64,000 bases of DNA from positions 11,346,001 to 11,410,000 of the forward strand of contig OX344752.2 in NCBI GenBank assembly GCA_947034885.2, given 5' to 3'. The notes below the pieces were generated by a model. It did not search any database. It was not told where the DNA came from and worked only from the letters and a program-made list of their open reading frames with translations. Below, piece by piece: positions 38,292 through 64,000 of the stretch (position 1 is its first letter; the number at the start of each line of letters is the position of its first letter). The position numbers were made by a program, and so were the translations under genes. This DNA is from Thuidium tamariscinum. Its lineage: Eukaryota; Streptophyta; Bryopsida; Hypnales; Thuidiaceae.

Positions 38292-38339
38292 GGGTAAATT
38301 TTTTTACCGCGAAGTAAGAAGTTTTTGCCTACGTCGCAG

Positions 38340-44640: not shown

Positions 44641-45084
44641 CTGGCCTGAGCAAGGTGGACAGTTATTAACCTAGCTGTAACAGGTATTATTTGAGAGATT
44701 CGGAGATTCCTCCTAGTTCCACATTATATCCCACTTCATTCTCATTAAAAGCAGCATCTAAATTACTATGTAGCAATAGTTACTCCAAAGTGATTTACCA
44801 TTTCATGCACATAGAAGCTTTTAAAGGTATTTCCAACCCCTTCACCACCAAGCCCTATTGGCTCTTTCTCCAAGAAATCATGAACCTTCAAACCTCAATA
44901 AAAAATATCATACTTTTACTTAGGAATGTTGAGTTCTATGAGAGCTCAATTATGGAGGAGGACAACCCTCAATTTCATGATATTTCAAATGCTTAATCCC
45001 TAAAGGACTAAGAAGATACAATGTGTCATCTTCAAAGTTTTCAATGGCAATTTCTTGTAAGGGTGAAGCAAATCTCAATATGAA

Positions 45085-45745
45085 ACAAAGGGAATGTAAT
45101 ATTTTTGGGATCTCAGTATTAGACTTAGATTAGTGGGAAAAAAAATGGGAAGACAAAATTTTAAAAAATGACAGTTATTCAAAAATGTATACTTGAACTT
45201 CTACCAAAACATTATGGAGATAGAGTTTCTATTAAAATTCAATGGAACCCCACCCCCCCCCTAGTACTTTAAAAAAAAAGGAAATGTAATATTTTTGAGA
45301 TCTCAATATTAGACTTAGATTATTGGGGAAAAAAATGGGAAGACAAAATTTAAAAAAATGACACTTATTCAAAAATGTAAACTTGAACTTCTACCAAAAC
45401 ATTATGGAGATAGAGTTTCTATTAAAATTCAATGGATCCCCCCCCTAGTACTTTAAAAAAAAAGGAAATGTAATATTTTTGAGATCTCAAAATTAGACTT
45501 CGATCAGTTGAAAAAAAAATGGGAAGACAGAATTTTAAAAAATGATACTTATCCCAAAATGTATACTTGAACTACTACCAAAACATTATGGAGATAGAGT
45601 TTCTATTAAAATTCAATGGATACCCCCCCCCTAGTACTTTAAAAAAAAGAAGGGAATGTAATATTTTTGAGATTTCAATATTAGACTTAGATTAGTTGAA
45701 GAAAAATGGGAAGACAAAATTGAAAAAATATGGCACTTATCCAAG
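45085..45745. repeat. Tandem repeat, unit about 185-190 bp, 3.5 copies
   Basis: AATGTAATATTTTTG starts at about 45091, 45284, 45468 and 45655. Each full unit ends with AATTCAATGGA, a C-homopolymer of 7-10 and CTAGTACTTTAAAAAAAA. High identity between units suggests recent amplification. Confidence 0.88.
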
Positions 45746-46784
45746 AATGTGGAAATAGAAGGACATTTACAAATAAAATATTAGAAATTTAAGTTACCTT
45801 TTTAGCTCTAACATGGACCTTAATGACATTGATCTAAGCAATTAGATAGTATCCTAAAGAGGATATCTTAGCCTCCAAAATTTATGTGGATTTAGTTGCA
45901 ATAATGAATTATGTTGAATGCATCTTAAGGACAAGTATTTATTGTAAAGATGCTTGCATTGACCAAATGATAACAATGTTGTGTACAATTTGAGAAGAAC
46001 TTTACTCCAAGTCAAATGAGTAGGAGGTTTCCATAAAAATGAATCCAATCTCATGTCATAGTATTTTGTGTTTAATCCTTATTTGAAGCCTTTGTGTAGG
46101 CTTCTCATGATTTAAGGGTTTAGGTAAATGGGTTTTTTTTTGCTATATAACTTCCATTCTAAAGTTGTAATTGAAATATCAATTATATTTCTAGATAAAT
46201 AACATTCCAAAGTAGAGGGACAATGGAAGTTTAGGGATAATTAAGGATTTCGGTTTTATTGAATATAATACTCCAAGAACATATAATTTAAGATCTAAAA
46301 AATGTTCAACAAAAGATCTTTAGGAATAATTAAGGGTGAAGCAAATTTCAATATGGTAATACTAAATTATCTTTAGACTCCAAATAAATTTTTCTAAGGG
46401 GTTAAAAAATCTATATTCATCTTTTTATAAATTTGTTTCTCCCAAAACTACGTTTGTGGCCCATGATGTTGATCATCAAGAATTGCTATAATGTAAAGAT
46501 CTAACCATTGAAATGTTCTACAATTAATTCCATACATGCTAGATATAATAATTTTTACTTTTGTACAGTTAAAATTTTAAAAAATGATAACACCTATGTG
46601 CCCAAAAATATGGAAGGATAGAATTGATTGAAATCCTCCATTGTCAAAACTGTTTTAGTCTTGTAGGGATTAAAGGAATGCAATAATACTATTGCATAAA
46701 AAGTTTGTAGTTAATAGACACTTGAGCAAAATGCTACTTCAATGTTGCAAAATTAAAAATTAAAAATTGAAGTTATACATATAT
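45746..46784. other. Gene-free AT-rich sequence
   Basis: No gene or clear repeat was seen between the tandem array and the long repeat that starts near 46785. Confidence 0.4.
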
Positions 46785-47830
46785 CTTTTAGTAAATGGCA
46801 AACACCATTGTATTAGAAATGAACATTTAGACCAAAAACATTTGAGCCAGAAGGGGTGAACAATAAAAATAAGTTATACTATAGTGAAACTAATACAAAT
46901 ATTTGAATGCAATTCAATGGACACACTCCAAAAATGAATTTTAAGCCTTTAGGTGATTTGAATCAGGTAGTTTTGACAATTGCTATTTTTAATTCAAGTA
47001 ATAGATTTTAGGAAAAAATATGAATTTAGGCACATATAATTGTAAGATCCTATATTACACTAGTTTGAGAAGATGTGGAGGAAAGTTAACCAATTTTCTA
47101 CTATGAAAATTGCCAAGATATTAACATTTGAATTGATTGTAATTCTTTTGAGGGCCTTGTGATGTATGAAAACCTAGGAAGTTGCACTTCATACAATCAC
47201 ATTTGTATAAAATAATTGTCGTAATGGTGTTTCTTTTCTATACCAAATTACCAATGTTCAAAGGCAATTCATAAGATGCTTGAAATTTTTTTTAGGCAAA
47301 CTACAAGTGTATAACATTTTTGGAAAATATATGTCAGTACATAGGAATATAGAATGATTTCAAATAGTAAGTTGTTAAGAGTTGAATTATATAGAATTGA
47401 AAATGCCAATTCCAATGGTAATTATTATCCTGCATCTAATATTTCAATTTTTGTTATAGATTTCGAATATTGAATTAAATGAAGAACTTTACAGAATTTA
47501 TTGTGCATTTGTTGATTAGAAAACTAGGAAATCCCTAACAACCCTTAATCAAAATACCTCTTAACGATCATGACAGATGCTACTATATGAGTCTAAAAAT
47601 GTGAATCCCCAAGACTATTCACCTATAGTATAGGTATTTAAATCATAGAAACTTTTTATAATTAGAGATTTCTAGTTTGATTATACTATACACACTTATA
47701 TTATTGGTGCATATGTTATAAACACATTGAAATATTCAATAGTTGTGGGATACCTACTTATATCTATAATCAAGGCTTACATACTTGCATTTCTATCTTC
47801 TCATGCTAGCATTTTAGTAACAAAATCAAA
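46785..47830 (+). repeat. Left arm of a 1-kb inverted repeat pair
   Basis: Starting at TTTAGTAAATGG, this block matches 52500-53512 in reverse orientation over about 1 kb at roughly 80% by eye. Shared words include GAATGCAATTCAATG, ATTCTTTTGAGGGCC and TTCATACAATCACATTT. It contains a diverged TTAACCCC-type interior followed by a GATGCTACTATATGAG MITE (about 47575-47825). No transposase. Confidence 0.75.
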
Positions 47831-48567
47831 TTAAGAAATTCACATTTTAAATTTATTTTGAAAATTTGTAGAGCACTTATTTCAAAGCCCAAAACTTATT
47901 GGGGTTATGCGTCTCCAAAGTATGCATCTCCAATGTTTGTATCTCATTTTTTCGGTGACCAAATTTTTTAAATTGAACATATGAAAAGAGGATTGTAAGA
48001 CTGTGCATGTGTTTTGTAAATTTAACACACTCGTGAAGTCGTGATCAAACATTATAATCTGTCATCCATAAGTGATAATATTCTATTTTCTTTACCTTCA
48101 TAACCTCTAATATGCACAGTTTAAATTTGTATGCTTATAATTTAAAGAAAATTGATGAAGCATATGAAATATTATCCTATTCCTAAAAACTAAAAAGGAA
48201 TATGAAAGTTGCATGTACAAAAATGTATTAATTGAAAGAAACATCTATTTTATGAAATTTAGATATGGACACTTTCTTCATAAAAATTTGAAATGTCTAC
48301 ATATTACATATTGAGCATTTTATGGAGATGCTTTTTGAAAGATTGAATGAGCATTTTGGATGTTTAAAAAAAACCCATCAACATGCAAACAAAGGAATAT
48401 GAATTCTTTTGCATCCATACACATCAATGATAGAAATGAAACACCCCAAGTTTGCAAAATAATACTAAAAAATAATAGTAGCCTTTTTATATATAGATGT
48501 TTACAAAAGTCATAAGTCCTCCAAAAAATGCTAGCATTGCTAGCCCCCCAAAAGATCATACAACATT
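47831..48567. other. Gene-free; 3' flank of the coiled-coil gene
   Basis: AT-rich, no further features seen. A 79-codon minus-strand frame at 48320-48559 has no recognisable feature. Confidence 0.4.
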
Positions 48568-49964
48568 CTACTTGCTTTGTTCATCTGTCTTTAGCCTTTT
48601 CTTAGCTTCCAAGTCTTTCTTCGCCTCCTTGTAGGCACTATCCAAATTGGATTGAAGAGGAAAATCCCACCATTTATTTTTCATGTACTCTTTCTTCAAA
48701 TTCAGTGCATTGAGCAAATTCATCTTCTTCTTCTCCACTTCCCCGGCCACATCACTTTCCAATGCGAGAGCATGGCTAACTTCTTCTTTAGGTCCTCTGC
48801 TTCCAACTTCAATGTCTCATGTTGCCTCTCATGATCTTCAGAATCTTGTATATCAACAATACAATCAAGAGGGGCTTTGTCCTTCATTTTCTGAAGGTCA
48901 CGTAATTTTGATTGTGCACCTTCAAGAGATCTTTTTTCATTTTCCAAGCAGTCAGCTTCGATGTGACAATCTTCCTTGAGTTTAGCCAATCGTTCTTCTA
49001 CAAATTTGTTAGTTGAAGAACTAGAACCTTCACCCCCTGAAACGGAGAAGTTCAGATAGAATGCTTCCAAGTTCAAGATTTGCTCATGTTGCTTGGTCAA
49101 CTGAATTCGTCCCGATTCAATGAGGGCTTGAAGGGTTGGAACATCATCAGAAGTATCAGTCACTGCCCCTTCCTCCAAAGTCCTTTTCTCTTCATTTGCT
49201 CTATCCAACTCTTCAAGCACACTCTTCAATTGAACTTTATAAAAGTCGTTCAATGGAATATCTTCGTTGGCCTCCACACTTGCAGCTTCAACAGATCCTT
49301 CAATTCTTGGCATCCCTTCCAATGAAGGCAATGTCAACGTGGGGCCCGCCTCCACTTCCCCCTCCTCCAAAGGCTCCAAATTAGCCAATGTCTCACCCAC
49401 ATGTGGCAGTCCAACATCCATCAACTCATCTTCACTACTTTCGTGATCCGACCACACGAACTCATTGTTCGGAACTTCATTCTTGATGAAAATCTTTTTC
49501 CCTAAACCTTCACGTGGGTTTTGGGAGGGACCCGCCCTAGGAATGTCCTTGGTTGACGGTTTTTGGACAAGCTTTGCTCCCTTAATGGTGCTCCAATCCA
49601 CCCTTCGTCGAAGAATAACTTCCGCGTACACCATCTCACATAGAAACAAGGGAATTTCATTCCGAGGCACACTTCGTGTCTTGTACAAGTATCGATATAC
49701 TTCGATACATCTTTGTACAAATCCATCGTGAGTGCAAGCATGAAGATTTGCCATATTTGACTTCAAGTGGATTTTGTGTCGATGATAGGGGAAAAGCTTA
49801 TCGATGTGGCACCATTGTACAAATGCCCTACAAGTGGTCGCGGTCCAAAAGCCTTCGATCCTCTCCCAACCTCCATGAGCCACGACATTAGAGTCCACAA
49901 GGACGTGTCGTTGTCTTTTTTGCATCTTGCCTTTGGCTTTACGGTTCCTCCGGGTGGCGTCCAT
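48568..49964 (-). CDS. Unrecognised coiled-coil protein, paralog 1, frameshifted near its C-terminus
   Basis: Intronless frame. The ATG at 49964 (MDATRRNRKAKG) is chosen because similarity to the 61058 paralog starts there; the open frame extends to 50042 without homology. An N-terminal basic segment precedes the shared domain (WCHIDKLFPYHRHKIHL, then CIEVYRYLY, EMVYAEVILRRRVDWST). A variable acidic middle follows, then a C-terminal half rich in heptad-like E/K/L, predicted coiled coil. At about 48760, in an AAG-rich run, the frame ends in an arginine-rich stop at 48720. The alternative frame continues LESDVAGEVEKKKMN to a stop at 48568, which suggests a 1-nt indel. Function unknown. It shares its promoter core with the 61058 paralog and the kinase gene. 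Confidence 0.72.
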
Positions 49965-50070
49965 TGGATTGAAGTAGATGGAGGTATTAAAAAATACCCA
50001 AATGCGACAATAGCTGCCCCAATAGATGCACGAACCACACAATCACAGTAAAAAAAAACCAAGTACTGGA

Positions 50071-50173
50071 CACGCAGTCAGCCACGAGAAGCGGGTGACA
50101 GAGTAGTGTGCAGCGCTGGAATTGCAAGTGGGCGAATGCGGATGGGGCGACCACTTATAAACCCGATGTCGCC
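50071..50173 (-). promoter_or_regulatory. Shared core promoter, copy of the coiled-coil 1 gene
   Basis: On the minus strand GGCGAC (50173-50168) and its complement GTCGCC (50151-50146) enclose a TATAAG box at 50159-50154. About 60 bp downstream comes TCACCCGCTT then GTGGCTGACTGCGTG (50098-50071). The same blocks at similar spacing lie upstream of 54476 and 61058. The box is about 190 bp upstream of the chosen ATG. Promoter function is inference from position and conservation. Confidence 0.65.
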
Positions 50174-50440
50174 TGGGGCGCGTGCGTTCCGTGCGAGGGC
50201 GACTGCGGGTGGGGCGAGTGCGGGAAGGGCGACCGCACGAGGGCGATCGCGGGTCCTTTAAAGGACCTGTTTTGCGGTCTGGGCGACCGCGCCTGGGCGA
50301 GTGCGCGAAGGGCGACCACGGGAAAGGCGACCGCGGGTCCTTCACAGCAGTGGCGACCGCGGATAGGGCGACCGCGGGTCCTTTTACGAGGTCATTTATT
50401 TCTAAATTTCCCGCCTTCTGACTTGGGCGACCACAGGTTG
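50160..50440. repeat. GC minisatellite module 3 (5' of coiled-coil 1)
   Basis: About 12 copies or variants of GGGCGACCGCGGGT on the plus strand, several followed by CCTTT. It begins right at the promoter core and ends about 50440. Relative to the gene the unit reads ACCCGCGGTCGCCC. Confidence 0.87.
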
Positions 50441-51299
50441 TTCACCAAGGAAATCTGAATTTTGGATTTCGCCCTCTGAAAAATAGTTGTAGAAATGAAA
50501 AGGAAGCCGATGTGAACTAAAAAAAGGATTCATGGGAAGAAATGGTGTGTAAAAGAACAAGGAAATGCCCATTTTTTCAAAAAATAAAAGTTTATAAAAA
50601 TAAAAAGGGAAATCATATTAACTAAAGAATGCTCATTTGGAGAAAATTCCATGAGAAAATAAATATAAAAATAACACAATCAATGAAAGGCTTGAAAGAA
50701 AAATGCATTGTAGGAATGAAAAGAAAAATCTCAGTATCAATAAAAAAAAATCATGAATTCAACTACAATAGTGCAGTAATGACCTGAAGTATGTCAAAGC
50801 TAAATGCTCAATAATGTAATTGAATGCCTATATAAGTTAAAATGCAATGGTATACATTTCCACCAATATTTGGTGTGTAATTTTTGAGCATAGGAAGCTG
50901 AGATTCATTTTATATAGATTAATAATGATGTCCAAAGTTGTACACCATCTAATTTGGTGGGAAAAATATCTAACTAAAGAAATTGTTGCAAAAGTATTCT
51001 ATATAAAAATAACTACCAAGTGGACTACTAAGTATTATTCAACCTTCTTTTTTGGATCCATATTGCTTACATAAAAAAATATAGAAGCATGTCTATTCTT
51101 TATTGTTTTTTTATTTAAGTTGAAGGTGACATTTGAGAGCCATTGTAAATACAAAATCACATCATTTCTTTGTTTTCCTTACGACCCCCAATCAACATCC
51201 AAGAGCATAATAAAACATGAATTTCTTTTTTGGGTTTTAGAATATGATGATTATGGTGTGAAAGACCCTGAATCCAAAAGCACATTAGCCTTGTTTTTG
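50441..51299. other. Gene-free AT-rich sequence
   Basis: No gene or clear repeat was seen. Confidence 0.4.
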
Positions 51300-51730
51300 T
51301 GGGAGGTTTCTATTGGGAACCTCATTTAATTCTAAGACATATTTTTTTATTTTTTTAGAAAGTTTCCCATCATAACTTCATTAAATTCAAAAGAGCATTT
51401 TCTTTTAAGAGGTTCACATCAGAAATCTCATTTAATTATAAAACTAATATCTTAATTATTTAGTAAGGGTTTTCATTAGGAACCTTATTTAATTCAAAAA
51501 CATATTTATCTTGAACCCCTTTTTTTAAAGGGTTCCCACTGAGAACTTCATTGCACTCAAAAACACATTTTTTTGGATGTGGTTCCCATTGGAAACCTCA
51601 TTTATTTCAAAAACACAATTCCCTCTTTTTTTGGCGTGGTTTACATTGCAAACCTCATTTCATAAAAAAAAACAATTTCCCTCTTTTTCAAAAGAGGTTT
51701 GCATTGGGAACCTCATTCAATCCAATAATT
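51300..51730. repeat. Diverged tandem repeat, unit about 50-64 bp, 7-8 copies
   Basis: Each unit carries a GGTTCCCATTGGGAACCTCATTT-like palindromic block followed by AATTCAAAAACACATTT. The blocks centre near 51316, 51376, 51424, 51479, 51543, 51591, 51651 and 51706. Frames running across it are repeat artefacts. Confidence 0.72.
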
Positions 51731-52499
51731 TGTTTTATTTTATAAAAAATTTGGTTCTTGTTGTGCATAAACTCATATGCATTAAATTCTGTGATGCCTT
51801 ATTTGGAATACTCATTCAAAAGATGTTAAGTGATATAACCTCACCTTTGGAATTCTCGGAAAAAAATTAAATTTTTAAGCTATTAGTAGTTGAGGTTAGG
51901 GGTCAACTTTAAATCAACCTCTACTTAAATAACTATTTAGAGAGAACAAAACATTATTTTCTTTAGGGTGAAATCGTAGATCAAATATTGAAAGATTCCT
52001 TAGTTATTGGTCACAGGATTGATGATATCATCATTTGGAACATGAAGGGGGGGGATTTTAGTGCTCAATTTCCTTTTCTATCTAGCCTTTCGGCCCTTTT
52101 CAAGCTTGGCCGCTTTGTATATTGGATTCATCTTAATGCAATAGTTCTTCCATTTTTTCAAATACATATTTAATTTTATTTTTTGCAAATTCATTTCAAA
52201 AATAAAGTATTACAAAATCTAAATTCAAAGTGGAAAAATTTTAGGATCTAAATATTCTAAAACGTAGGTATTGTATATGGTATTATTGTCCAACAATATG
52301 TTATAATCTTATTAAAATATCAAGGATTATTTTGAGTTTTCTTCTATTCTAATCCTTGCCTTTATCCTTTACAAATTAATATCAATCCTCTTTAGTTTTT
52401 TGAGATAGGACAAGTTCTTATACACTTTAACAATTCCTTAAAATTATAAGCGTACAAGTTCTAACTAGGTAAATGCAGAGATTATCAAGGTAAAGAAAA
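51731..52499. other. Gene-free AT-rich sequence
   Basis: No gene is supported. Short frames near 51988-52173 are featureless. Confidence 0.4.
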
Positions 52500-53512
52500 T
52501 ATAATATTATCACTTATGGAATTATGGATCAAGAGAGTATAAATAGGTATGCCACAACTATAGAATATTTCAACGTGTTTATAACATATACCCTATAATA
52601 TAAGTGTGTATAACATAAGTGTACTAGAAATCTCTTTTCTATGATCCAGACACGTATATTATAAGTGAATCGTCTTCTAGTCTTAGGGACTCACATTCTT
52701 AGGCTCATATAGTAGCATCCGTCACGAGTTTTAAGAGGGATTTGGGATGCAATAGATCTCCCATTTGTTCAAAAAATAAAAAATAAAAAATTGTACAATG
52801 GTTTGTAAAGTTCTTCATTTAATTCAATATTCAAAATTTATTACAATAATTAAAATATAATGTGTAGGATAATTCTTTGAAATTTGAACCATTGAAATTA
52901 GCATTTTCAATTCTAGAATTGAACTACTAACAACTTAGTCTTTGAAATCATTCAATATTCCTATCTACTTGCTATGTTTTCCCAAAATGTTATACACTTC
53001 CAAATGGTTAAAAAGTTCTCAAGTATATTATCAATTGCCTCTAAACATTGGTATAAATAAGCACCACCATTTACGGCAATTGTTTTATATAAATGTGATT
53101 GTATGAAGGGCAACTTCCAGATTTTCTTACATGTCACGGCCCTCAAAAGAATTTCAACCAATTCAAATGTTAATAGCAAGGTAATTCTCATGATAGAAAA
53201 ATTTGAAATTTCCTCCACCACTTTTCAAACTAGCATAATATAGGATACTACAACTATATGTGCCTCAATTCATTTTTTTCCTCAAAATCTACTACTTGTA
53301 TTCAAAAGAGCAATTATGGATAAAACAAAATTCAAATCACTTAGAGGTTTAAAATTCATAGTTGGAGAATGTTCATTGAATTGCATTCAAAGATTTGCAT
53401 TAGTTTGGCAAAGGTATAACCTCTTCTAATTCTTCACTCCATTTGGCTCAAATGCTTTGTTCTATTAAATGTTAGATTTTAGTACAATGAGATTTTCCAT
53501 TTACTAAAAAAC
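52500..53512 (-). repeat. Right arm of the 1-kb inverted repeat pair
   Basis: Reverse-complement partner of 46785-47830, including the MITE-like part near 52550-52735 (GGCTCATATAGTAGCATC) and an outer end at CCATTTACTAAAAA. The two arms bracket the coiled-coil 1 gene, its promoter core and GC module 3. Confidence 0.75.
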
Positions 53513-53564
53513 TAGGATACAATACATTAAACTATTCCCTAATGACAAATTTTTAGTTGTCATG

Positions 53565-53733
53565 TAAAGCGACCGCCTTTAGAGCGACCACACTTCACAA
53601 TTTATTTATTTATTTTGAACCAAAGGGGCAAGCCCTCTGCATGAAGAAGCTTAACAAAATTTGCAAACCCTGAAAGTAAGGCAACCGCGGGTAAGGGGCG
53701 ACCGCGCCTCAAGGGCGATCGCCAGTGCCACAA
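53565..53733. repeat. Small GC minisatellite remnant
   Basis: AGCGACCGCC and AGCGACCACAC at 53567-53600, then GGCAACCGCGGGTAAGGGG and CGACCGCGCC at 53680-53725. These are the same unit as the larger modules, in plus orientation. Confidence 0.7.
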
Positions 53734-53774
53734 GTTGCGTCAGAACACACTACCATTCCAGGCTCGATCGGCCC

Positions 53775-54128
53775 TTAAGAGAATATTCTATTTACTAAAT
53801 AGGTTTCATCCAGTGTCCCGCAATGCTCTATCAGCAGGGTTGAAGTTCGAGTTTCAACGAGACATTTCTCGATTTTATCCATCTTCAGAAGTTTTTTGTT
53901 GTAGACATCATAAACTCGATTGAAAACATGATGAGCACTTTTCACTTGCAGCTCCGACGACACGGGATTATCTCGACACTTGGCAGTGCACAGCACAATT
54001 GCCTTCCCGAGCAAAACTTCCACCACATTCTCATTCTCAACTCCCTTGATACTGCCTTGCGATATAAACACCTCCTTCCCGGCCTTGCGTGGAGGAAGCT
54101 CTTTCTTCAGAGTAAGGGAGCTCCTCAA
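53775..54128 (-). pseudogene. BAH-domain gene fragment
   Basis: The minus-strand frame contains KEVFISQGSIKGVENENV, VEVLLGKAIVLCTAKCRDNP, KSAHHVFNRVYDV and a following LKMDKIEKC. This resembles the C-terminal half of the BAH domain of plant chromatin readers of the ASI1 type, where ELFLASGEG, GKC.VLC and FYR.FDV are the corresponding positions. The first strand of the domain and any partner domain (RRM or PHD) are absent. GC minisatellite abuts the 5' side and a smaller remnant lies 40 bp beyond the 3' side. The call as BAH is by motif memory only and should be checked. Confidence 0.5.
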
Positions 54129-54280
54129 ACGCGGTCGCCCCCCAGCCGCTGTCGCCCCCCAGCCGCGGTCACCCCCAGCCGCGGTCGCCCTCCAGTCGCG
54201 GTCGCCCTACCCGCGGTCGCCCTACGCACCCGAGGTCGCCTACCCGCGGTCGCGTCTGGATCCGCACGCGCCTGGGGCGA
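54127..54280. repeat. GC minisatellite module 4 (5' of the kinase gene)
   Basis: About nine copies of CGCGGTCGCCC with CCCAGC, CTACC or TACC spacers, read on plus in the same direction as the kinase gene. It ends where the inverted GGCGACTTCGGGT of the promoter core begins. Confidence 0.87.
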
Positions 54281-54375
54281 CTTCGGGTACTTAAGCAGTC
54301 TCCGGGACCGCATTCGCCATCTTGCCTCGGCCTTGCGCATTGTCTTTCACCCGCCTTGGAGTGGCTGAATGCATG
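54275..54375 (+). promoter_or_regulatory. Shared core promoter, copy of the kinase gene
   Basis: GGCGACTTCGGGTACTTAAG at about 54277-54295 is followed by GCAGTCTCC, a partly decayed inverted partner. TTGCGCATTG at 54333 and TCACCCGCCTTG then GTGGCTGAATGCATG (54347-54375) follow, at the spacing seen at 50.1 and 60.7 kb. TACTTAA takes the TATA position, about 185 bp before the ATG. Confidence 0.65.
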
Positions 54376-54475
54376 CCCGTGGGCCGGGGTCCTTTATTCG
54401 ATTTTGGGGGGATTTTTTTGTCATTTTGATCTATAAAATTCCTCAAAGCTACGGTGAAGCTTTCAATTACACGCA

Positions 54476-56131
54476 ATGTCCAACCCAATAGAAGATGGCG
54501 ACGTGAGGTACAAAGGTATTTTGGATACTCATCCAATATTCTCAGAAATGCCTAATCCCACAGAGGGTACCAGTACCTTGAGGCGAAAATCCCTTTGGGA
54601 TTTGGATGATCCACAACACTTTCTAGAGCCTATATTTACAAGCGAAACAACAGGGAATGAAGCTCGATTGAAGAAAAAGAAGTCCAGGTCTGCTCATGAT
54701 AAGGATCCAACATATCCTCCTTCAAGTTATACGAAGTATGCATACGAGGTGTGCCTTCAATGGTACGCTGGCAAAAGTGTACAATTTTTGGAGGCAAACT
54801 ATTTGAGGGATGCTGGAACAGGCACGGAGAAGCTAACGGGGGATTTGGAGGCCCGAATCTTAAGCAAGTGTTATGAATCAGAGGACTTCAAAGACGTGGA
54901 CTTAACGTACAATTCCAGATTTTGTGATTGGATGACTGATACTATTCAGGCAGTAACTTTTAATACCAAGAAATTGATGATAGAGTTCCGTGCACCAACC
55001 ACAGGACGAGTGGAAGATGAAGAGGCAAAGGAATTCCGTGCGAAGATGGAGTGGTGGCATACTACGTCCAAGAGATTGTCAAAGTTTGGACCGAGGGGTT
55101 TCAAGTGGAAAAATGACGCTGTGAAGGCTGCATTTGCAAGAGATGGTGGAGTGAGTATCATATGGATTCCACCCACAGCAAAGGTTGAGGCCCTCGGTGG
55201 TTTTTCTCGTGAAGGTGGCCACGGAAAGGTGCGAAAGGTTCGAATAACAGGTCTAGATACCATTCCACCAAATATTGCTCTTGCGGGGAAAATGCCAAAA
55301 ACGAAGGACTTGCGTGATCAACGGGTGGAGCGGTCCGTAGAGGCCTTGGCATGCCCTTTAAATCATGCAGGCTTAATTAAGTTTTTTGCCTTAAACTCAA
55401 TTACCATGGAAGCGTATACATTGTGGTGGAATGGAGGTCATTTGGGTGACTTACTGAATGTGGATAAGCTGGTGTCACGAACTACTGAATGGCACGAAGT
55501 GCATCGAATCAGAGAACTTCCTGAAGAGAAACAAAAGGAAGTTAGCCTTTTTCGAAGGCATAAGGCAAAGTTGGCATGGACCTTGGTGTATGTGACTCAC
55601 CTCATGCACCAATCATCAGTGCTACACAACGATTTATCTCCGAGAAATGTATTGTTGCACTATCCTGATTATTCAAATGAAATAATCAACATTGGGATTT
55701 GTGATTTTGGAATTACAAGCCGTGTAAACGAAAAAGCCCCATCGCATTATGGATATCCTACCAAGGAAGAGACACGAAAGCAACAAGAGGGACGATGGTG
55801 GGTGGTTCCAGAGTTGTTTTATACATTTGGACCACCTAATTCGGATACAAGCATACCAATTATGCAATCGAGGCATAAATATACAAAGCAGTCAGACTCG
55901 TATTCTATTGGAAAGCTGGTGGAAGCTATGAAGATTGGGGATATGTATCCTTTTGACAAAGAGACATTCACAACGATGGATGCATGTAGGTATTTTGCTA
56001 TGAAGGTGGGCCAACTCAAAAATGAAGATCTGAAGGAGAGACCAACATGTACAGAGGTGGTGAATTTGGTCCTGGGGCCTCCATGGTATATGAAGCCTCC
56101 AACATTTGTATTGCGCGATTCCCCCCTGTAG
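54476..56131 (+). CDS. Intronless protein kinase with novel N-terminal region, 551 aa
   Basis: Residues 1-235 have no recognised domain (acidic and basic stretches, W-rich segment near 190-212). A kinase domain fills about 236-535. It has a glycine-rich loop GGFSREGGHGKV (241-251), a candidate lysine at 272, a helix-C glutamate near 286-289, catalytic loop LHNDLSPRNVLL (D386, N391; HND instead of HRD), CDFG (409-412), a PE pair at 445-446 replacing APE, SDSYSIGKL (473-481) and the subdomain XI arginine (ERPT). All core catalytic residues are visible, so activity is plausible. The substrate is unknown. It lies downstream of GC module 4 and the shared promoter core. Start chosen as the first ATG in frame after the core. 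Confidence 0.87.
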   Translation: MSNPIEDGDVRYKGILDTHPIFSEMPNPTEGTSTLRRKSLWDLDDPQHFLEPIFTSETTGNEARLKKKKSRSAHDKDPTYPPSSYTKYAYEVCLQWYAGKSVQFLEANYLRDAGTGTEKLTGDLEARILSKCYESEDFKDVDLTYNSRFCDWMTDTIQAVTFNTKKLMIEFRAPTTGRVEDEEAKEFRAKMEWWHTTSKRLSKFGPRGFKWKNDAVKAAFARDGGVSIIWIPPTAKVEALGGFSREGGHGKVRKVRITGLDTIPPNIALAGKMPKTKDLRDQRVERSVEALACPLNHAGLIKFFALNSITMEAYTLWWNGGHLGDLLNVDKLVSRTTEWHEVHRIRELPEEKQKEVSLFRRHKAKLAWTLVYVTHLMHQSSVLHNDLSPRNVLLHYPDYSNEIINIGICDFGITSRVNEKAPSHYGYPTKEETRKQQEGRWWVVPELFYTFGPPNSDTSIPIMQSRHKYTKQSDSYSIGKLVEAMKIGDMYPFDKETFTTMDACRYFAMKVGQLKNEDLKERPTCTEVVNLVLGPPWYMKPPTFVLRDSPL

Positions 56132-56426
56132 TGATGAATGCATTAGTTGAAGGCAAATTGTTGAGCTATTAGAAGAAATTGTTGGCAACAATGTGAGCCT
56201 ATCATTTTGTATTACTATACACGAATATATAAATTTTTCTTTGGCAAAACAAAGTGTACATACCATTGCCTTCCATGCATTGTATTTTAAAAGTTAAAAT
56301 ATAATTTATCTTGGAGTCAAATTTGTCTTCACTGTGAGTTGAAATGTCATATGACATGTTTGTATCAAGTCCATAAGATCACCTTTTTGGGGAGTATGGG
56401 GAAATAATATATTACGCAGGCTTTAT
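56132..56426. other. 3' flank of the kinase gene
   Basis: Probable 3' UTR followed by AT-rich sequence. No separate feature was seen before the foldback element. Confidence 0.4.
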
Positions 56427-57517
56427 GGGTGATTGCATGAAACACTTGTACTGCTGTGTTGCATCATGTTTTGTGGTGACTAGTTTTTTAGCCATAACTT
56501 ATGTTTTTTAGCTCCAAATGATTCAAATTTTTAAAAATGGGTACTCATAACTATTATACATCATTTAGAATTTTTGAAGATTTAAAAAAAATATTTTACT
56601 ATTTTTAAATAGCCCCCAATTTTTTGTCACATATTCCAATTTAGGGGTTTTTAGTACTATTTAGAACCCCAAAAAAAGAATTTTGAGCTGAAATTTTGAG
56701 AGAATGTTTTTTTAGTAGAATTATAGCTTACCTCCAAAGGAATTATAAAAATAGTCATTTTTTGGATGTATAGAAGTCCACAAAGAGACCTTCTTTCTAC
56801 TTGCTTTTTGAAACATATTAAACATTTTTTTGGTGATTTTCTTGGTCAAGCCTTATCACCAAAAAATCTTCTCAAATGGCCAATTTTTATTTTTATTTTC
56901 AAAAATGTTTTTTATTTTTTATTAATTAGAACATTGAAGTATGTATTTTCTTCACCGGAATTCTATGTGTTCTATGTCCAAAATCCTAGTGAAGAAAAAT
57001 ACAACTTCAACATTTTAATTTGTAAAAAATAGAAAAAACAAATTTAATGAAATCTAAAAATTGGCCATTTGAGAAGACTTTTTGGTGATAAGGCTTGACC
57101 AAGAAAATCACCAAAAAAATGTTTAATATGTTTCAAAAAGCAAGTAGAAAGAAGGTCTCTTTGTGGACTTCTATACATCCAAAAAATGACTATTTTTATA
57201 ATTCCTTTGGAGATAAGCTACAAGTCTACTAATAGAATATCCACTCAAATATTCAACTCAAAATTCGGTTTTCTGGGTTCTAAATAGTACTAAAAACCCC
57301 ACAATGTCAAAGTGTGACAAATTAACAAAATTGAATTTTAAATATCAAATGTTTTTTTTTAATTTGTAAGAAATAAGAATAATAATTTGAGTCAAGATAT
57401 CGAGGAAGTGTTTTTTTATTTTGGACACTTAGTTTTTTATTCAAAAGTTAGAGCCATCTTAAAGCGGTCAACCCAAAAAAACGCAACAAATAGTACAAGT
57501 GTTTCGTGCATTCACCC
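56427..57517. mobile_element. Long foldback element with GGGTGATTGC-type ends (1091 bp)
   Basis: The left end GGGTGATTGCATGAAACACTTGTAC is answered by GTACAAGTGTTTCGTGCATTCACCC at the right end. Inner arms of about 140 bp (56762-56890 and 57055-57188) are near-perfect inverted copies around a 165-bp loop. Subterminal blocks (AGCCATAACTTATG, TTTACTATTTTTAAATAGCCCCC) resemble those of the DDE element at 25316, so it belongs to the same or a sister family. A transcript would form a very long hairpin. No clean target duplication is visible. Confidence 0.85.
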
Positions 57518-58882
57518 TTAATATGCTCACAAATTTCATGCTCATGCCTCATGGAGTCATGGCTCTTAGCTCACAAGCTCTTTGTTGCAAGCTCTCATAC
57601 AAGTGTCGTTGAAAGTGAACGTGTTCAAATTACTTGTTAAATTGTGTTAAAGGATTTTCATTATTTTGTCATTTTTTATTTTTATTTTTTTTAAAAATAT
57701 TTTGTCATATTTTTAAATAGTCACTTGATTGCTTGAAGTCAATGACATTGACATGTTTGTTGGCCCTTTAGTGTGCAATTTTTTTTCCCAATAATAGACA
57801 ATATTGAGTAAAATTACAATTCCCAAAATGTTATAGGTTTCTTTTGTCCATAGTACTCTATAGTATAAGGGATTTTTTTCCTCTAGTAATTTACATCCTT
57901 AAAGATTTAAAATAGACTTAAGAGATATGGGACTTCAAACAACAAAGGACCCAAACATTTGAGACTTCATTCACTTCAAGAGTTCAAGTTGGTAGTAATT
58001 AAATAAAATATGATGAGCCTTTATCCGTATAGTGAAACTAAAAAGTCCTTGATAATTGTATCCTCCATTTCTTTGCTCCTCAATCCTTACGTGCAAAGAT
58101 TTTTAGGTGATTTTTTAGATTAGAGATGAATTAGAGATGAATTGACATGATTGACTAGTGCATGTATTCAGAATTTGAATTTTCTATTAAAAATTTCCGA
58201 TCATTATGAAATATGAATTTATGAAGAAAGCTTAAAAGAAACTAATATTCAATACTTAATCCTTGAAGGGCAAAGGGGGACATAATGTACTTACTCGAAA
58301 TTTTCAATGACAAATTCCCGATAGGGCAAAACTAATTTAAGTCTTCATTCTTAATACACAAAGAAAACTTTAATTTTATTTTCAAATTTTATTTATTATA
58401 AATCTGAAAAATATTACCCTAAACGTAGAGTTCTAGAATTATAGTGTGAATGTATGATAGAAAATACCAAATAATTAGAATGATTCCAATTTTCTGGGAA
58501 GATGTTTCTATTTATGGAATGATAATAAAAGATTTATAAAATTTGAAAATTTACACATATATAGTTTTTATAAAAATGTTAAGATCCAATTTGGCCAATT
58601 TCCCTATTTTTTACAAATTGAAAAATAAAAGTGCCTATTTCCATGAGCCATTTGTATTTTTCTAGTTCACCACTTCACCTACTTAGAAACCTTTTCTACA
58701 CTTTTCCTTCATCGGATATCTTCTTCTAGAAGAAATATACATTCCCTATATTTTTTATATTTTTTAAAAATTGTTTTTGTATTTTGAAAGTACTCCCGGA
58801 AAATCAAGAGTACTATGGCCAAAGTGTACCAAAACCGGTCAACCCTCCTATGAAGATAGGCTGTTTGTTTGTTTGGATGTTT
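57518..58882. other. Gene-free AT-rich sequence
   Basis: About 1.4 kb with no supportable gene or clear repeat family. Confidence 0.4.
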
Positions 58883-59177
58883 GTTACGTTGAGATCTCCC
58901 GGACCGTGAGTCCCCCGGGTGCGTGTTTGGTACCATTGGAAAGCCCTCGGCGAGGAGGGGTGCACGGGCTTTGATTCATGGTGTTCTGACCTACGGTATG
59001 AAAGTTATTGAATTTTGAAGTTTCTATATGTTACGTTGAGATCTCCCGGACCGTGAGTCCCTCGGGTGCCTGTTTGGTACCGTCGGAAAGCCCTCGGCGA
59101 GGAGGGATGCACGGGCTTTGATTCACGGAGTTCCAACCTACGAAATGAAAGTTATTGAATTTTGAAGTTTTTATACA
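58883..59177. repeat. Two tandem 147-bp GC-richer units
   Basis: GTTACGTTGAGATCTCCCGG starts at 58883 and again at 59030. The units share the CGTGAGTCCC, GGTACCRTYGGAAAGCCC and CGGCGAGGAGG blocks and end in GAAAGTTATTGAATTTTGAAG. Identity is above 90% by eye. Confidence 0.85.
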
Positions 59178-60575
59178 TTTATAAAAATATTTTTTTCTTT
59201 TCTTTTAGACCGTGGCAACGGCACGGGCCACCCTAGTCTTTCTTGAACTTACGATAAATGGTCTACAACATAAAATTCTTTGAAAGATCTAACATGTTGA
59301 ATACTTGAATTAGAATTTGAACAATTTTAATTAAAAGAAAGTTGTCGAACTTGTCAAAATGTAGACAATTTTTTCAATTTACAACAAATTCCAAGAAGCT
59401 CAAAATAGGCCTTGGCGCCTTGTCATTAAGGAGTTAATGGCTTTACGTGTGGAGAAGTTTCTTGTGCCATTCCATGTTTGATAGTTTTGCTATAGATCTT
59501 GAATAAAGTACAAGATTTCAATTTAGAAATTTTGAATGGAAACGAAATTTAATTCCAAATATTCGGTTTTGTTACCTTTTATGAATAGCTAATTGGTTAA
59601 GTTTGAATGTCAAAATGAAGTTATAAATTTGTAATGGGAGAAACCAAGAAAATATTGAAAGGCACTATATTTTTTTATTTTCTTTAATGATTTTAGATTG
59701 GCTTACTGACATATTGGATATTTGGATGAGGAAATGGAGTTTGTCATCATGCTTTACAATAATTTGTTTATTACATTTTGGAAGAATGGATGTGAATTCA
59801 TTTATTCATGGTATATTTAACTTCTTTATCTTATATACTATTATAGATTGAATTCCTTTATTTTGTTTTGTTTGCAATATTTTCAAAGAAGGAAGAAAAT
59901 GATAGATAGTACTGAACTATGTTGTTTAGAAATCATTTAAACCATAGGGATGGTCAATTATGTTATTCCATCAACACTTTTTTGCCATTTTGGCATGTAC
60001 AATAATTTTCTACCTTTGCCTATTTACAATTTATTTCCCTTATCATATATAATTTGAATAGTTTTAAAACCTTTTAATACAGTATCAAATTTGTTTTTTT
60101 CGTAAATATAGAAGAAGACTACTATTTTTTAACTACTTGCAAAACCATTTCTAGATACATGAGAGGTTCCTCAGAAATAAATTATTGAAAATAGATATCT
60201 TTTTTTTGGTGAACTATTATCTTCAAAGATTATAGAAAGTTACAACACAAAGGATTTTTCGATTTCAACCATACAAAATTCTTACAAATTTGGGACTTCA
60301 CGACTTTAGGGGATGCTAACTTCGTAGAAGTCACTGAACTAATCATTAACCAGTAAATGGCCAGGGCCTATTTTGAGCTCCTTCGAATTTGCTTTCATTA
60401 AAACGGAATGTAAACATTTTCATAAGTTTTTATTATTTCACTCTTGATTAGAAATGACAAACATTATCATCAAAGGTTGCATAGGAAAAAAAATATATCA
60501 CTTATAGAGTGAAAGACTATAATATTTGATAATGAAGGTGTTAAAACAACAAAAGAACTAGAAGCCCCAAACCCG
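59178..60575. other. Gene-free AT-rich sequence
   Basis: No gene is supported. T/A-rich sequence leads up to GC module 5. Confidence 0.4.
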
Positions 60576-60700
60576 AAGGCGCGGTCGCCCATCCCGCAAA
60601 CGCGCACCCGTGGTCGCGCACCCGCGGTCGCACCCCACGAACGCGCACCTTCCTGGACTCGCGGTCGCCTTGAATGCGCAGTCGCCCTTGCGCACGCGCC
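60576..60700. repeat. GC minisatellite module 5 (5' of coiled-coil 2)
   Basis: About seven variants of CGCGGTCGCCC or CGCGGTCGCAC on plus, interleaved with AACGCGCACC and GCGCACGCGCC. It reads in the same direction relative to the gene as modules 1, 3 and 4. Confidence 0.85.
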
Positions 60701-60703
60701 CTA

Positions 60704-60800
60704 GGCGACTGCGGGTACTTAAGCAGTCGCCCCGACCCATAGTCCACCTCCCTTGCTTTGCGCATTGACCTTCACCCACTTAGATGTGGCTGATTGCGTG
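60704..60800 (+). promoter_or_regulatory. Shared core promoter with perfect palindrome, copy of coiled-coil 2
   Basis: GGCGACTGC (60704-60712) and GCAGTCGCC (60723-60731) are perfect complements with a 10-nt spacer containing TACTTAA. TTTGCGCATTG at about 60758 and TCACCCACTT then GTGGCTGATTGCGTG (60772-60800) follow. This is the best-preserved copy of the core. The ATG is 327 bp downstream of the palindrome. Confidence 0.68.
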
Positions 60801-61057
60801 CCCGTGAGCAAGGGATTCCATACTTCACGTCGGGATTTGCCATTTTTGCGCTCGAGCTCTGCACATGCTTGGCATACTGTTATGTATGAGTATGTGCCTT
60901 TTTTTTTATAAAAAAAAAAATTTGTAAATGCATATAGGTTTGTAAATGTGTAGTTTGCTTGTTCTAGGGATTTAGGTTTTTAGAAAAGAACATTTTAGTC
61001 GTAGAACAATTAGTTAAGTTAACCATAGAGTAGCATAGTACTCAGGTAGCAATAGTT

Positions 61058-62554
61058 ATGGAGGATGAGACTGGAGCAGCCCAGCCTAGTACAGGCAAAC
61101 CATTGACTTCACCACAGAAGAGGGCAGCTCGAGACAAGGACCGTAAAAGGAAGGAGAAATGTCACAAGAAGCGAGTGCCTCTCCTTCAACATCTAAAAAT
61201 CAAGGCTTTTTTGGGTTGGAGGACTGAACCTGAGCCTTGGACTTACAAAACAGTCAACAAATATGTTGATTGGTGCCACATCAACAAGTTGTTTCCACAT
61301 TGGCGCCACAAGATTCATTTGGGGCAAAACAAGGCCAATCTTGCATATTGCAAAGATGAAGACTTCACACTCAGATGCTTGGAAGTATGGATGAGGTTGT
61401 ATGGGGAGACCAAGCCATATAGAAACGACAATTTCTGTTTCTTCCTGGTCCAAATGGTGTATGTTGAAAACATATTGAAGAAAAAAGTGGACTGGTCAAC
61501 ATTGAAGGAGCTTCTAGTTGGAGACCATGTGGAAGAAGCATCTATTGTGGCAGAAGGTGAAACAATTGATGTGAAGAAGTCATTGGCACGAGTGAAGCCT
61601 GGGAAGTTAGCTGTTTTGGATGAAGACGTAGTATGGTCGCCTAATTCTAGCTCGGATGAACACACCCATGAATACGATGGGTATAATTTCCAGAGCGACG
61701 ATGAGGATGTTGGCATGGGCGACCAAAAAAAGGCATTGGAGTTGGAACTTGCCAAGAAAGGCAAAAGAAAGGTGGAGGACCGAGGGACTCCATCAAACAT
61801 CCCAAAACAAGTCAGGGAGGGTCATGAGCATATGGAAGTAGGCCAAAAAATTGTTGAAGGCCTCCAAGATGGGAGAGTAGGTGATGGAGAAGAGAGTGTG
61901 GACATTATCCAAGCTCAATTAGATTCAGCAATTGAGGCCTTGGATTTGGTGAAAAGACATGTGTTAGAATTGCGCCAAATAAGAGCATTGGAACTTAGTG
62001 CTGGCACAACTGCACACACCATCCCTATGTTGAAGGAAGAGATGAAGGCCATATATAGGGCCATCTCTGAAAATGACGAGCGCCTAGCTTCTATGAAAAA
62101 AAGTAGAGATCTTTATTACAAGAAGAAACAAGAGAAGCGTGGACACCCAATGGACGTGTATGCCATACTTCAACAAAAATTGAGAATTCTTGAACGCGAA
62201 CGTTGGCGGGTGCACAATGACGTAAGAGTCTTCAATCGGCAAATAGATGAGGAAGAAAAGACCAACTACGTTGCTGCTCTACAATGTGCCTCAGAGCTAG
62301 ATTTTCTCGCTATGGCTCCTCAATACGGTACCACAGAAGAAGAAGTATCAGTATTGCGGAAGCTTGTAAAGCTACATGAGAAGAAATTTGTGGAATCAGT
62401 GAAAGAGGTGGGACAATTGGATTCACAAATTAAATTTGAGCACGCTTGGATGAAGTGGAAAGTGCGTACTACAGCTCGAGGTGTTACTCGTAAAGACCTT
62501 GAAGAGATAGGTCCAGAACCCAAAGAAGAAGATTTTTGTAATACCACACGTTGA
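61058..62554 (+). CDS. Unrecognised coiled-coil protein, paralog 2, 498 aa
   Basis: Intact intronless frame. The first 50 residues are strongly basic (possible nuclear signal). Residues 60-150 form a conserved domain shared with the 49964 paralog: WCHINKLFPHWRHKIHL at 72-88, LRCLEVWMRLY at about 105-115, QMVYVENILKKKVDWSTLK at 132-150. Residues about 150-275 are acidic and low-complexity. From about 280 to 470 the E/K/L/R pattern suggests long coiled coils (LNERERWRVHND-like heptads). No catalytic motif, transmembrane segment or known domain was recognised, so no function is proposed. The histidine/tryptophan-rich domain could bind nucleic acid or protein, but that is speculation. Confidence 0.85.
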   Translation: MEDETGAAQPSTGKPLTSPQKRAARDKDRKRKEKCHKKRVPLLQHLKIKAFLGWRTEPEPWTYKTVNKYVDWCHINKLFPHWRHKIHLGQNKANLAYCKDEDFTLRCLEVWMRLYGETKPYRNDNFCFFLVQMVYVENILKKKVDWSTLKELLVGDHVEEASIVAEGETIDVKKSLARVKPGKLAVLDEDVVWSPNSSSDEHTHEYDGYNFQSDDEDVGMGDQKKALELELAKKGKRKVEDRGTPSNIPKQVREGHEHMEVGQKIVEGLQDGRVGDGEESVDIIQAQLDSAIEALDLVKRHVLELRQIRALELSAGTTAHTIPMLKEEMKAIYRAISENDERLASMKKSRDLYYKKKQEKRGHPMDVYAILQQKLRILERERWRVHNDVRVFNRQIDEEEKTNYVAALQCASELDFLAMAPQYGTTEEEVSVLRKLVKLHEKKFVESVKEVGQLDSQIKFEHAWMKWKVRTTARGVTRKDLEEIGPEPKEEDFCNTTR

Positions 62555-64000
62555 AGTGAAGTATTATAGGGTTGTGCTTTGATTTTGCGTTTTGGACAAA
62601 TGTGTCTAATTTTAGGATGTAATTTTTTGGTAATTAATGTAAAAAGCAATTTTCGGAAAAAATGTGCAAGTCGTGAGGATATTTTATTGAAGATGTGAAA
62701 TAGTATTATGATAGTTTAGGACATAACCACTTGAATAATTGTTCCACCAATTGAAAACCCTACCCAAATCAATATAAAATCAATTATTTTCTGTTGTTTA
62801 GGAGTTAGGACATTGTAATGACAAATGTTTATCTATAAAAAAGAACCAATAATGATTAACTTCTAAAGGAAGAATGTCAAATTTTTCGAAAAATTACTTT
62901 GTGGTGCCATTTCTGTTGCATTCATCCAAAAGAAGACTTTTTTTTTCCATAATATCCAACCGTAGGATCTTGTACTTTGCTTGCCTAAGATCATGTGGTG
63001 AAATGTTTAGGAAGTTTGACCGGACAGATTGAAAGATATGGCCATCGAAAGTTCGAAATAAAGTTTTCCGAGATGCAATGCCTATAAATGGAGAATACAA
63101 AATACTAATTACATTCATTTGCTAGAAGAAATACTTCATGTTTTTATGGTGGAATGAAAGTGGAGTTTTAAGAAAAATAGATTAGGTACATTTCCAATTT
63201 CCAGTTGTGGTAATAATAAAAAAATTATGATATTTTTTAGCAAACTTTGATAATCTTTTTGGCATAGTAAATTAACAGTCATTGATAAAAAGAGAACTTT
63301 CTAAAAAAAATTGTGTGACAAAGTTCACTTATTTTTTCCAAAGATCCGTTTGAGAATTGAGATTTCAAGCTTCTGATCAAAAGTAATGTGCAAAAATCAT
63401 AGAAGGCTTCAAAGGCCAAAAAATTACCAAAAACTTCAACATTATTTCTCCTTTTTATCCATAAATTTTGAAATAAAGATCCAAATGTCAAATCAATTCT
63501 TGGACATTTAATTGAACTTCAATTCAACCCTTTTTTTGGTTTAGAAATTTCCTTCAAAAATTCATTTATTATACCTAATGGATGTCCGAAGTGTGTTGAT
63601 TTGGTTTCAAATTATATGATTTCTAATTATAACATGGATTCTAGACTTTGTAGAGAATTCAAATAATACGTGATTTTTTGAAAAATGAATCTATATTTGT
63701 ACAATCCTAGGTTTACAAATACATTTGCCTATGGTTTTCAAAGAACATAAAATTAGGAAAATAAATTTTCCTCTAATATGTCAATGAACAATGAATTATG
63801 GAAAAACAAAATTCATGAGACATATTTTGTCTATATTATTCCATAAAAGTATGTATGTAAAAAAAAATTTGAACCTTCAACTTCTCTCATTGCTCATTTT
63901 TTGATATTTATCATATAAATTATTAGAATAAAAAAATGCGGTCTTCTTGTATGGGATTTAATGATCGAAGTACCTTTCTTTCATTCAAAAATAAAACCGA
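62555..64000. other. Gene-free AT-rich sequence
   Basis: The first part is probably 3' UTR of coiled-coil 2. The rest shows no gene. A weak repeat relic lies inside (62890-63075). Confidence 0.4.
62890..63075 (+). repeat. Diverged TTAACCCC-family relic
   Basis: CCGTAGGATCTTGTA, CATGTGGTGAAA and AGATTGAAAGATA occur in the same order and spacing as in copies A and B. The termini are absent. Confidence 0.4.

What the first reader, a model, noticed from the sequence alone, without database searches (positions are those of the whole stretch)
50071..60800. A shared GC-minisatellite plus TATA promoter cassette precedes unrelated intronless genes
Seen: upstream of the ORFs at 49964 (minus), 54476 (plus) and 61058 (plus) lie, in order, a GGGCGACCGCGGGT minisatellite, GGCGAC with a TATA-like box, and TCACCC...GTGGCTGA.TGC.TG, at similar spacing. 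The genes encode a coiled-coil protein, a kinase and a coiled-coil paralog. Between the two paralogs a common promoter could be ancestral, but the kinase is unrelated, so the cassette appears to have been shared or moved. The hAT gene has a partial version, and the SUVR fragment has at least the minisatellite. Inference: a mobile or converting promoter module, or a larger element family carrying different cargo.
Basis: partly seen in the sequence, partly recalled or inferred. Interest (0 to 1): 0.88.

Follow-up and report, generated by a model that had tools for sequence, protein, structure and literature searches.

The report
Giant five-gene hAT jumping gene
The repeated "promoter cassette" is part of the control DNA of a 29-kilobase jumping gene of the hAT kind that carries five genes (its transposase, a protein kinase and three related proteins), which is much larger and more elaborate than ordinary elements of that kind.

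Summary
Genes A (49964-), B kinase (54476+) and C (61058+) share array, TATA-like box and GTGGCTGA core at similar spacing, beyond shuffles. The explanation is a whole mobile element, not a moving promoter. Window 38182 to 67616 (the last 3.6 kb lie beyond the window) is a 29,435-bp hAT-type DNA transposon with CAGGGTTGTTCTG ends and a perfect 8-bp target duplication. It carries hAT transposase, A, B, C and a RING-like protein D. Scored kinase copies: 72 at 89-100% identity, 7 at 72%. Between two subfamilies all five genes show purifying selection (dN/dS 0.15-0.30; one short hAT stretch 0.52). The core occurs 266 times genome-wide; 96 of the 100 listed sites have another core or a listed kinase within 20 kb. 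Cores group by gene rather than by element, with moderate support, so the sharing looks ancient. The 14-bp motif also lies just inside both ends, inverted, and stays in an 11-kb derivative without the genes. Inferred role: binding sites for an element protein, at ends and promoters. The SUVR fragment is flanking host DNA.

The parts
38174..38181 (.). target-site duplication CTTCTTTG (left copy; right copy at 67617-67624, in L030)
   Evidence: identical 8 bp on both sides of the element
38182..64000 (+). giant hAT-type transposon; runs on to 67616 beyond the window (29,435 bp in all)
   Evidence: homology to other copies starts here; CAGGGTTGTTCTG ends; right end in L030
38182..38202 (+). left terminal inverted repeat (18 of 21 bp identical to the right end)
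38370..38648 (+). left subterminal array of the GGGCGACCGCGGGT motif
40852..43851 (-). hAT transposase gene (DUF659 + Dimer_Tnp_hAT); 999 aa here, open frame 1129-1134 aa in most other scored copies
44078..44084 (-). TATAAAG box of the hAT gene
   Evidence: read from the sequence printed
44099..44629 (-). motif array upstream of hAT (mixed orientation, 112-bp period)
48720..49964 (-). gene A, protein with WCHIxKLFP N-terminal domain and coiled-coil-like tail (414 aa)
50061..50186 (-). promoter core of A (TTTATAAG at 50154-50161; GTGGCTGACTGC.. at 50068-50085)
   Evidence: nhmmer E 9e-30
50130..50438 (-). motif array upstream of A
54127..54288 (+). motif array upstream of B
54263..54384 (+). 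promoter core of B (TACTTAAG at 54288-54295; GTGGCTGAATGC.. at 54361-54378)
   Evidence: nhmmer E 3e-34
54476..56131 (+). gene B, protein kinase (551 aa; HNDLSPRN and DFG present)
   Evidence: Pfam PF00069 8.8e-11
60577..60716 (+). motif array upstream of C
60691..60809 (+). promoter core of C (TACTTAAG at 60716-60723; GTGGCTGATTGC.. at 60786-60803)
   Evidence: nhmmer E 2e-32
61058..62554 (+). gene C, paralogue of A (498 aa). Gene D (same domain + RING-like finger, minus strand, 64443-66716), the array at 67122-67447 and the right end lie beyond the window in L030

Best explanation
Shown: the cassette belongs to a ~29.4-kb hAT-superfamily DNA transposon with five genes (hAT transposase, A, kinase B, C, and D with a RING-like finger), amplified to scores of copies. 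Genes A, B and C have promoters of common descent, and all five genes and both ends carry arrays of the same 14-bp motif. Best supported, not proven: these promoters were already separate before the element's two subfamilies split. Inferred: one or more element-encoded DNA-binding proteins recognise the motif; the first candidate is the transposase, then the WCHIxKLFP-domain proteins A, C and D. Binding at the inverted subterminal arrays would assemble the ends for transposition; binding at the internal arrays would switch the element's genes together, as a small self-contained regulon. The kinase and RING-like protein probably act on the element's own proteins or on host silencing. Decay of copies at CG and CHG sites indicates that the host methylates the element, its arrays included.
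For: Ends and 8-bp duplications are perfect in the 4 of 4 copies whose two ends were both fetched: window CTTCTTTG, C1:7.13 Mb CGCACTGG, an 11-kb derivative GGTGGGGT, subfamily II ATGAAGGT, 36,733 bp. Transposase: DUF659 E 8e-32 and Dimer_Tnp_hAT 4.6e-07. Copies: 130 left ends, 76 right ends, 0 in reversed controls; 79 kinase matches scored, 59 of D, 46 of hAT, all lower bounds. Using 100 of the 130 left ends and all 76 right ends, 59 pairs form; 36 hold a kinase, 25 of these being 28.8-30.4 kb long. Order hAT-, A-, B+, C+, D- in the window and two further subfamily I copies. Selection between subfamilies: dN/dS B 0.15; hAT 0.18-0.23; D 0.23; C 0.27; A 0.29-0.30. Core profile hits lie at A, B and C of both subfamilies, 0 hits in shuffled DNA; 266 exact core sites in the genome, 0 in control. 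Motif sites: 54 of 54 inside the element, 0 in the 39 kb outside it. The 11-kb derivative keeps both ends with their arrays. C-to-T transitions per site, three copies pooled: 4-8% at CG and CHG, 0.6-1.3% at CHH.
Against: No binding, transcription or excision data exist here, so the regulon step is inference. The hAT gene, which should be the key regulated gene, lacks the core, and its array is of mixed orientation, unlike those of A, B, C and D. Arrays could be passive tandem repeats. Support for grouping cores by gene is moderate (0.75 for A, 0.89 for B, 0.88 for C), only two subfamily II copies were used, and by raw identity core B of subfamily I is as close to C of its own element (73%) as to B of subfamily II (72%). 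One short hAT stretch (170 codons) has dN/dS 0.52 and a 124-codon piece of a third element 0.44; within subfamily I the ratios run from 0.21 to 1.56 on few changes; comparisons with dS saturated were not used. The domain shared by A, C and D (model pLDDT 83) gave no confident match to solved folds, which is inconclusive. The window's own copy looks defective.
Confidence: 0.8

Rival explanations
1. A promoter-only module moves or converts between unrelated host genes.
For: Three genes share the cassette although the kinase is unrelated to A and C. Raw identities between cores do not by themselves exclude some homogenisation of B and C.
Against: All three lie in one transposon. Cores group by gene across subfamilies. 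Of the first 100 of 266 core sites only 4 have no other core or listed kinase within 20 kb, and the variable base goes with the gene. No core hit in the 38 kb of host DNA left of the element, at E up to 10.
Confidence: 0.03
2. A hAT transposon that picked up host genes as passive passengers (as in Pack-MULEs), with arrays as meaningless GC-rich satellites.
For: Plant DNA transposons are known to carry captured gene fragments (Pack-MULEs: passages of PMC6431247); tandem arrays expand easily; the hAT array is of mixed orientation.
Against: The five genes are single long open frames in many copies, conserved in two subfamilies at dS near 1 with dN/dS mostly 0.15-0.30, with relatives of B, C and D in metagenomes. 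Arrays of A, B, C and D face the same way relative to their gene, the two terminal arrays are inverted to each other, and the end arrays are kept by a derivative that lost the genes.
Confidence: 0.14
3. An endogenous large DNA virus or virus-transposon fusion (like Teratorn) whose genes share viral promoters.
For: Several single-frame genes with one promoter type in a large mobile unit.
Against: No polymerase, capsid, helicase or integrase domain in the five element ORFs scanned with Pfam (shorter frames not scanned, and A and C match no family). No relative of B or C in four scans of viral contigs. hAT ends and 8-bp duplications explain mobility.
Confidence: 0.02

Closest known systems
Maize Ac/Ds (hAT superfamily)
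   Same: short TIRs, repeated subterminal motif bound by the transposase, non-autonomous derivatives keeping ends and subterminal repeats (passages of PMC3260210); 8-bp TSD (recalled)
   Different: Ac is 4.6 kb (same passages) with one gene (recalled); here 29-37 kb, five genes, a 14-bp GC-rich motif, and motif arrays before every gene
Hermes (hAT)
   Same: BED domains of the transposase bind subterminal repeats; 8-bp TSD (passages of PMC10368747)
   Different: no motif arrays before further genes (recalled: one gene); a BED-like finger in our transposase was only read by eye, Pfam did not match one
CACTA elements En/Spm and Tgmt* (20.5 kb, soybean)
   Same: large plant DNA transposon; a separate element protein binds repeated subterminal motifs with a GC-rich part, possibly hindered by methylation (passages of PMC2613891)
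   Different: CACTA ends, 3-bp TSD, tnp2-type transposase (same passages)
ToxhAT of wheat-infecting fungi (14 kb)
   Same: a hAT transposon that carries a further gene (passages of PMC9594970)
   Different: about half the size, fungal; its known extra gene is a cargo gene, not a conserved set with shared promoters
Starships, Teratorn, Mavericks
   Same: giant multi-gene transposons (passages of PMC10175614 and PMC6431247)
   Different: other transposases (Teratorn piggyBac, from the passages; the rest recalled) and, for Teratorn and Mavericks, links to DNA viruses

Membership tests
hAT superfamily | transposase with hAT C-terminal dimerisation domain | tested here: met
   PF05699 4.6e-07, 30 bits against cut-off 21.4; PF04937 8e-32
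hAT superfamily | 8-bp target-site duplication | tested here: met
   4 of 4 copies with both ends fetched
hAT superfamily | short TIRs of the CAGGG type | tested here: met
   CAGGGTTGTTCTG identical at both ends, 18 of 21 bp; that CAGGG is typical of hAT is recalled
hAT superfamily | non-autonomous derivatives sharing ends | tested here: met
   19 of 23 paired elements without kinase are 9.5-12.6 kb; one read in full
hAT superfamily | transposition activity | not testable with these tools
   only high identity of copies suggests recent movement
CACTA | CACTA termini and 3-bp TSD | tested here: not met
Starship | tyrosine-recombinase captain gene | tested here: not met
   no such domain in the five element ORFs by Pfam; A and C match no family, shorter frames not scanned
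Polinton/Maverick or endogenous DNA virus | polymerase, integrase or capsid genes; 6-bp TSD (recalled) | tested here: not met
   none in the five ORFs by Pfam; TSD is 8 bp
Ac-like subterminal-repeat control | element protein binds the subterminal motif | not testable with these tools
   needs a binding assay

The most novel reading that the evidence does not exclude
A giant hAT transposon that is a self-contained regulon: one 14-bp motif serves both as subterminal transposition site and as operator before all five genes, and a conserved kinase, two coiled-coil proteins and a RING-like protein form a long-kept accessory set that regulates transposition or counters host methylation-based silencing.
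Probability: 0.37. Interest if true: 0.85.

Novelty: new variant of a known kind. Interest (0 to 1): 0.75.

Why it matters
hAT elements are normally a few kilobases long with one gene (recalled; Tol1 and Tol2 at 4.4 and 4.7 kb in the passages). A 29-37 kb hAT with five genes kept by selection, one a kinase and one RING-like, shows that a simple cut-and-paste family can become a complex multi-gene element. It offers scores of natural copies for testing how element genes are co-regulated and how such elements meet host methylation. It also warns that such genes could be annotated as host kinases or RING proteins.

Tried and rejected
Rejected: promoter-only mobility; SUVR as a member of the set (outside the element); RNA genes or a tRNA-like core (window only: no Rfam family at gathering score, no tRNA); viral origin.

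The notebook also says that arrays always face the same way relative to the gene; one search shows the hAT array mixed. For that last reason the odds of the best explanation went from 0.82 to 0.80, of the passenger rival from 0.12 to 0.14, and of the novel case from 0.40 to 0.37.
Full report
The observation. A scan for GGGCGACCGCGGGT with up to three mismatches gives 65 sites in the window where 0.47 are expected. They form clusters between 38.4 and 60.7 kb. Downstream of the arrays, genes A (49964, minus), B (54476, plus) and C (61058, plus) have a TATA-like box 36-43 bp after the start of the last counted array unit and GTGGCTGA 70-76 bp after the box. Local alignment of the 121-133 bp cores exceeds all of 1000 dinucleotide shuffles for the three pairs. 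Restricted to the part from the TATA on, it still does for AB and BC, and 1 of 1000 shuffles reaches AC. The hAT gene has array and TATAAAG; its similarity to A, B and C is reached by 63, 40 and 12 of 1000 shuffles over the whole stretch and by 777, 711 and 28 from the TATA on.

What it is. The assembly of the window is held: 363 Mb in 19 contigs, window at C4:11346001. tblastn on fetched stretches showed hAT, A, B, C and a further paralogue in the same order elsewhere on C1, mostly at 97-99% identity, and a more distant set at about 52-72%. DNA comparison puts the left boundary at window 38181/38182 in the five other copies whose left end was fetched, and a right boundary 29.45 kb further on in the C1:7.13 Mb copy. 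The right end of the window's copy was fetched: the element runs from 38182 to 67616 (29,435 bp), begins and ends with CAGGGTTGTTCTG, and is flanked by CTTCTTTG on both sides. Three more copies with both ends in hand also have perfect 8-bp duplications. With a DUF659/Dimer_Tnp_hAT transposase this is a hAT-superfamily transposon.

Its genes. hAT transposase (40852-43851, minus), A (minus), kinase B (plus), C (plus) and D (64443-66716, minus). A, C and D share an N-terminal domain around WCHIxKLFPxWRH; A and C are 31% identical over 294 residues, and seven versions from both subfamilies align with 31 invariant positions. D adds a RING-like finger that stays below Pfam's cut-off (zf-RING_11, 6e-05, 23 bits against 27); 7 of 16 metagenome relatives carry a RING family in the precomputed column. 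B has a protein-kinase domain. Between subfamilies I and II, with dS about 0.8-1.3, dN/dS is 0.15 for B, 0.18-0.23 for the long hAT stretches (0.52 for one of 170 codons), 0.23 for D, 0.27 for C and 0.29-0.30 for A; a 124-codon hAT piece of a third element gives 0.44, and comparisons with saturated dS (the third kinase, and between paralogues) were not used. Within subfamily I the ratios run from 0.21 to 1.56 on few changes. So all five genes have been kept by selection over the longer span. In the two subfamily II copies fetched, the kinase is on the same strand as hAT and A; in subfamily I it is on the opposite strand. Its promoter goes with it.

Numbers. Left end, up to 3 mismatches: 130 places; right end: 76; reversed controls 0. 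Kinase: 79 matches scored, 72 at 89-100% and 7 at 72%; by my count of that table 34 of the 72 have no stop in the matched stretch. D: 59. hAT: 46. These are lower bounds, as the tool states. From 100 of 130 left ends and all 76 right ends, 59 pairs were formed by nearest opposite end within 80 kb; 36 contain a kinase, 25 of them 28.8-30.4 kb long, the rest 26.6-27.4 or 33-64 kb; of the 23 without kinase 19 are 9.5-12.6 kb. One of the latter (C9, 11,148 bp, duplication GGTGGGGT) matches the window's element over the first 255 bp (93%) and the last ~250 bp (87%), both with arrays; further in it has array-to-array matches, a 72-73% match to the stretch 56432-57264, a kinase-like remnant at 37-43%, and no open frame of 120 aa or more except one across its internal array.

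How the cassette arose. A profile of the three cores finds A, B and C in the copies of both subfamilies fetched (E 6e-14 or better; one A core cut by a region edge gives 0.045). It finds nothing at E<3 at hAT, at the left end or in the 11-kb copy, nothing in shuffled DNA, and about 0.5 at D. A FastTree of 15 cores groups A with A (0.75), B with B (0.89) and C with C (0.88) across subfamilies, so the promoters were probably separate before the subfamilies parted. The support is moderate: raw identity of core B of subfamily I is 73% to C of its own element, 72% to B of subfamily II. Genome-wide, GTGGCTGANTGCRTGNCC occurs 266 times, 0 in control. Among the first 100 listed, 39 have A, 23 C and 38 T at the variable base; 24 of 39 A-letter cores lie 102-115 bp before a listed kinase on the same strand, 0 of 61 others do; 18 complete triads in subfamily I order are seen; 4 of 100 have no other core or listed kinase within 20 kb. 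The 15 unmatched A-letter cores include two (C1:5410094, C1:10215207) that sit before subfamily II kinases found but not among the places scored.

How it probably works. In the window plus 4.5 kb, 54 of 54 relaxed motif sites are inside the element. The arrays of A, B, C and D face the same way relative to their gene (with single reversed units next to the TATA of B and C), the hAT array is mixed, and the two terminal arrays are inverted to each other; where D's array ends and the right terminal array begins is my reading of the flip. That, and the end arrays kept in a derivative that lost the genes, fits binding sites for an element protein that brings the ends together, as the AAACGG repeats do for Ac transposase (PMC3260210, passages), short repeats for Hermes BED domains (PMC10368747, passages) and TNPA motifs in CACTA elements (PMC2613891, passages). 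The same motif before each gene suggests that one protein also sets their transcription. This is inference. Comparison of three copies gives C-to-T transitions per site, pooled, of 6.3% (CG) and 6.6% (CHG) in arrays, 5.4% and 7.7% in coding parts, 4.4% and 5.4% elsewhere, against 0.6-1.3% at CHH and 0.1-0.6% for transitions at A/T: the mark of plant CG and CHG methylation, also on the arrays. The window copy and the C1:7.13 Mb copy differ by 1.2-2.75% in array regions, 0.8-1.3% in genes and 0.46% in other non-coding DNA.

The window copy is probably not fully functional: its transposase frame is 999 aa against 1129-1134 in most scored copies, and D is cut by an early stop.

Known or new. hAT membership is met on each feature that could be tested. 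Size, five conserved genes, promoters of common descent, and a motif shared by ends and genes set it apart from Ac, Hermes, ToxhAT (14 kb, PMC9594970, passages) and other giants (PMC10175614 and PMC6431247, passages). The main text of the 2019 review of giant transposons has 0 occurrences of the word hAT. I rate it a new variant of a known kind. The host is probably a land plant, perhaps a bryophyte: the CG and CHG decay is plant-like, and the genome is 363 Mb; that is a guess. Ten searches of one open library listed no description of such an element, which does not prove there is none.

Noticed in passing
window 36351-38101 and L030:4121-4447: Frames of a SET-domain gene on the minus strand flank the element; the insertion lies at the end of a lysine-rich stretch (..PPPKKVKVTKK), perhaps just inside an intron.
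   Followed up: partly
window 56644-57321: A ~690-bp stretch inside the element downstream of the kinase that matches the same stretch of other copies in reverse at 87%, i.e. an inverted repeat; a related stretch is in the 11-kb derivative.
   Followed up: no
   Followed up: no
window 6954-7855 and 21274-21898: Stretches 72-79% identical to parts of the subfamily II elements near their left ends and elsewhere; possibly remnants or a shared inserted repeat.
   Followed up: no
window 25922-31165: Another transposon-like gene region (e.g. ..HIVFSDGCSAQFKG..); three frames scanned, no Pfam match.
   Followed up: no
L010 (C1:2828000-2837999): A third, more distant element with a kinase at 29-30% identity and a subfamily II-like left end.
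   Followed up: partly
L031/L032 element, positions 6226-6874 in element orientation: The 11-kb element has an internal motif array with a ~162-bp period; arrays with similar spacing occur at C1:16.50, 22.25, 22.66 and 22.75 Mb.
   Followed up: no
window 38182-67616 versus C1:7134478-7163927: Coding parts differ more between copies (0.8-1.3%) than AT-rich spacers (0.46%), mostly by transitions, fitting methylation-driven decay of GC-rich parts.
   Followed up: yes
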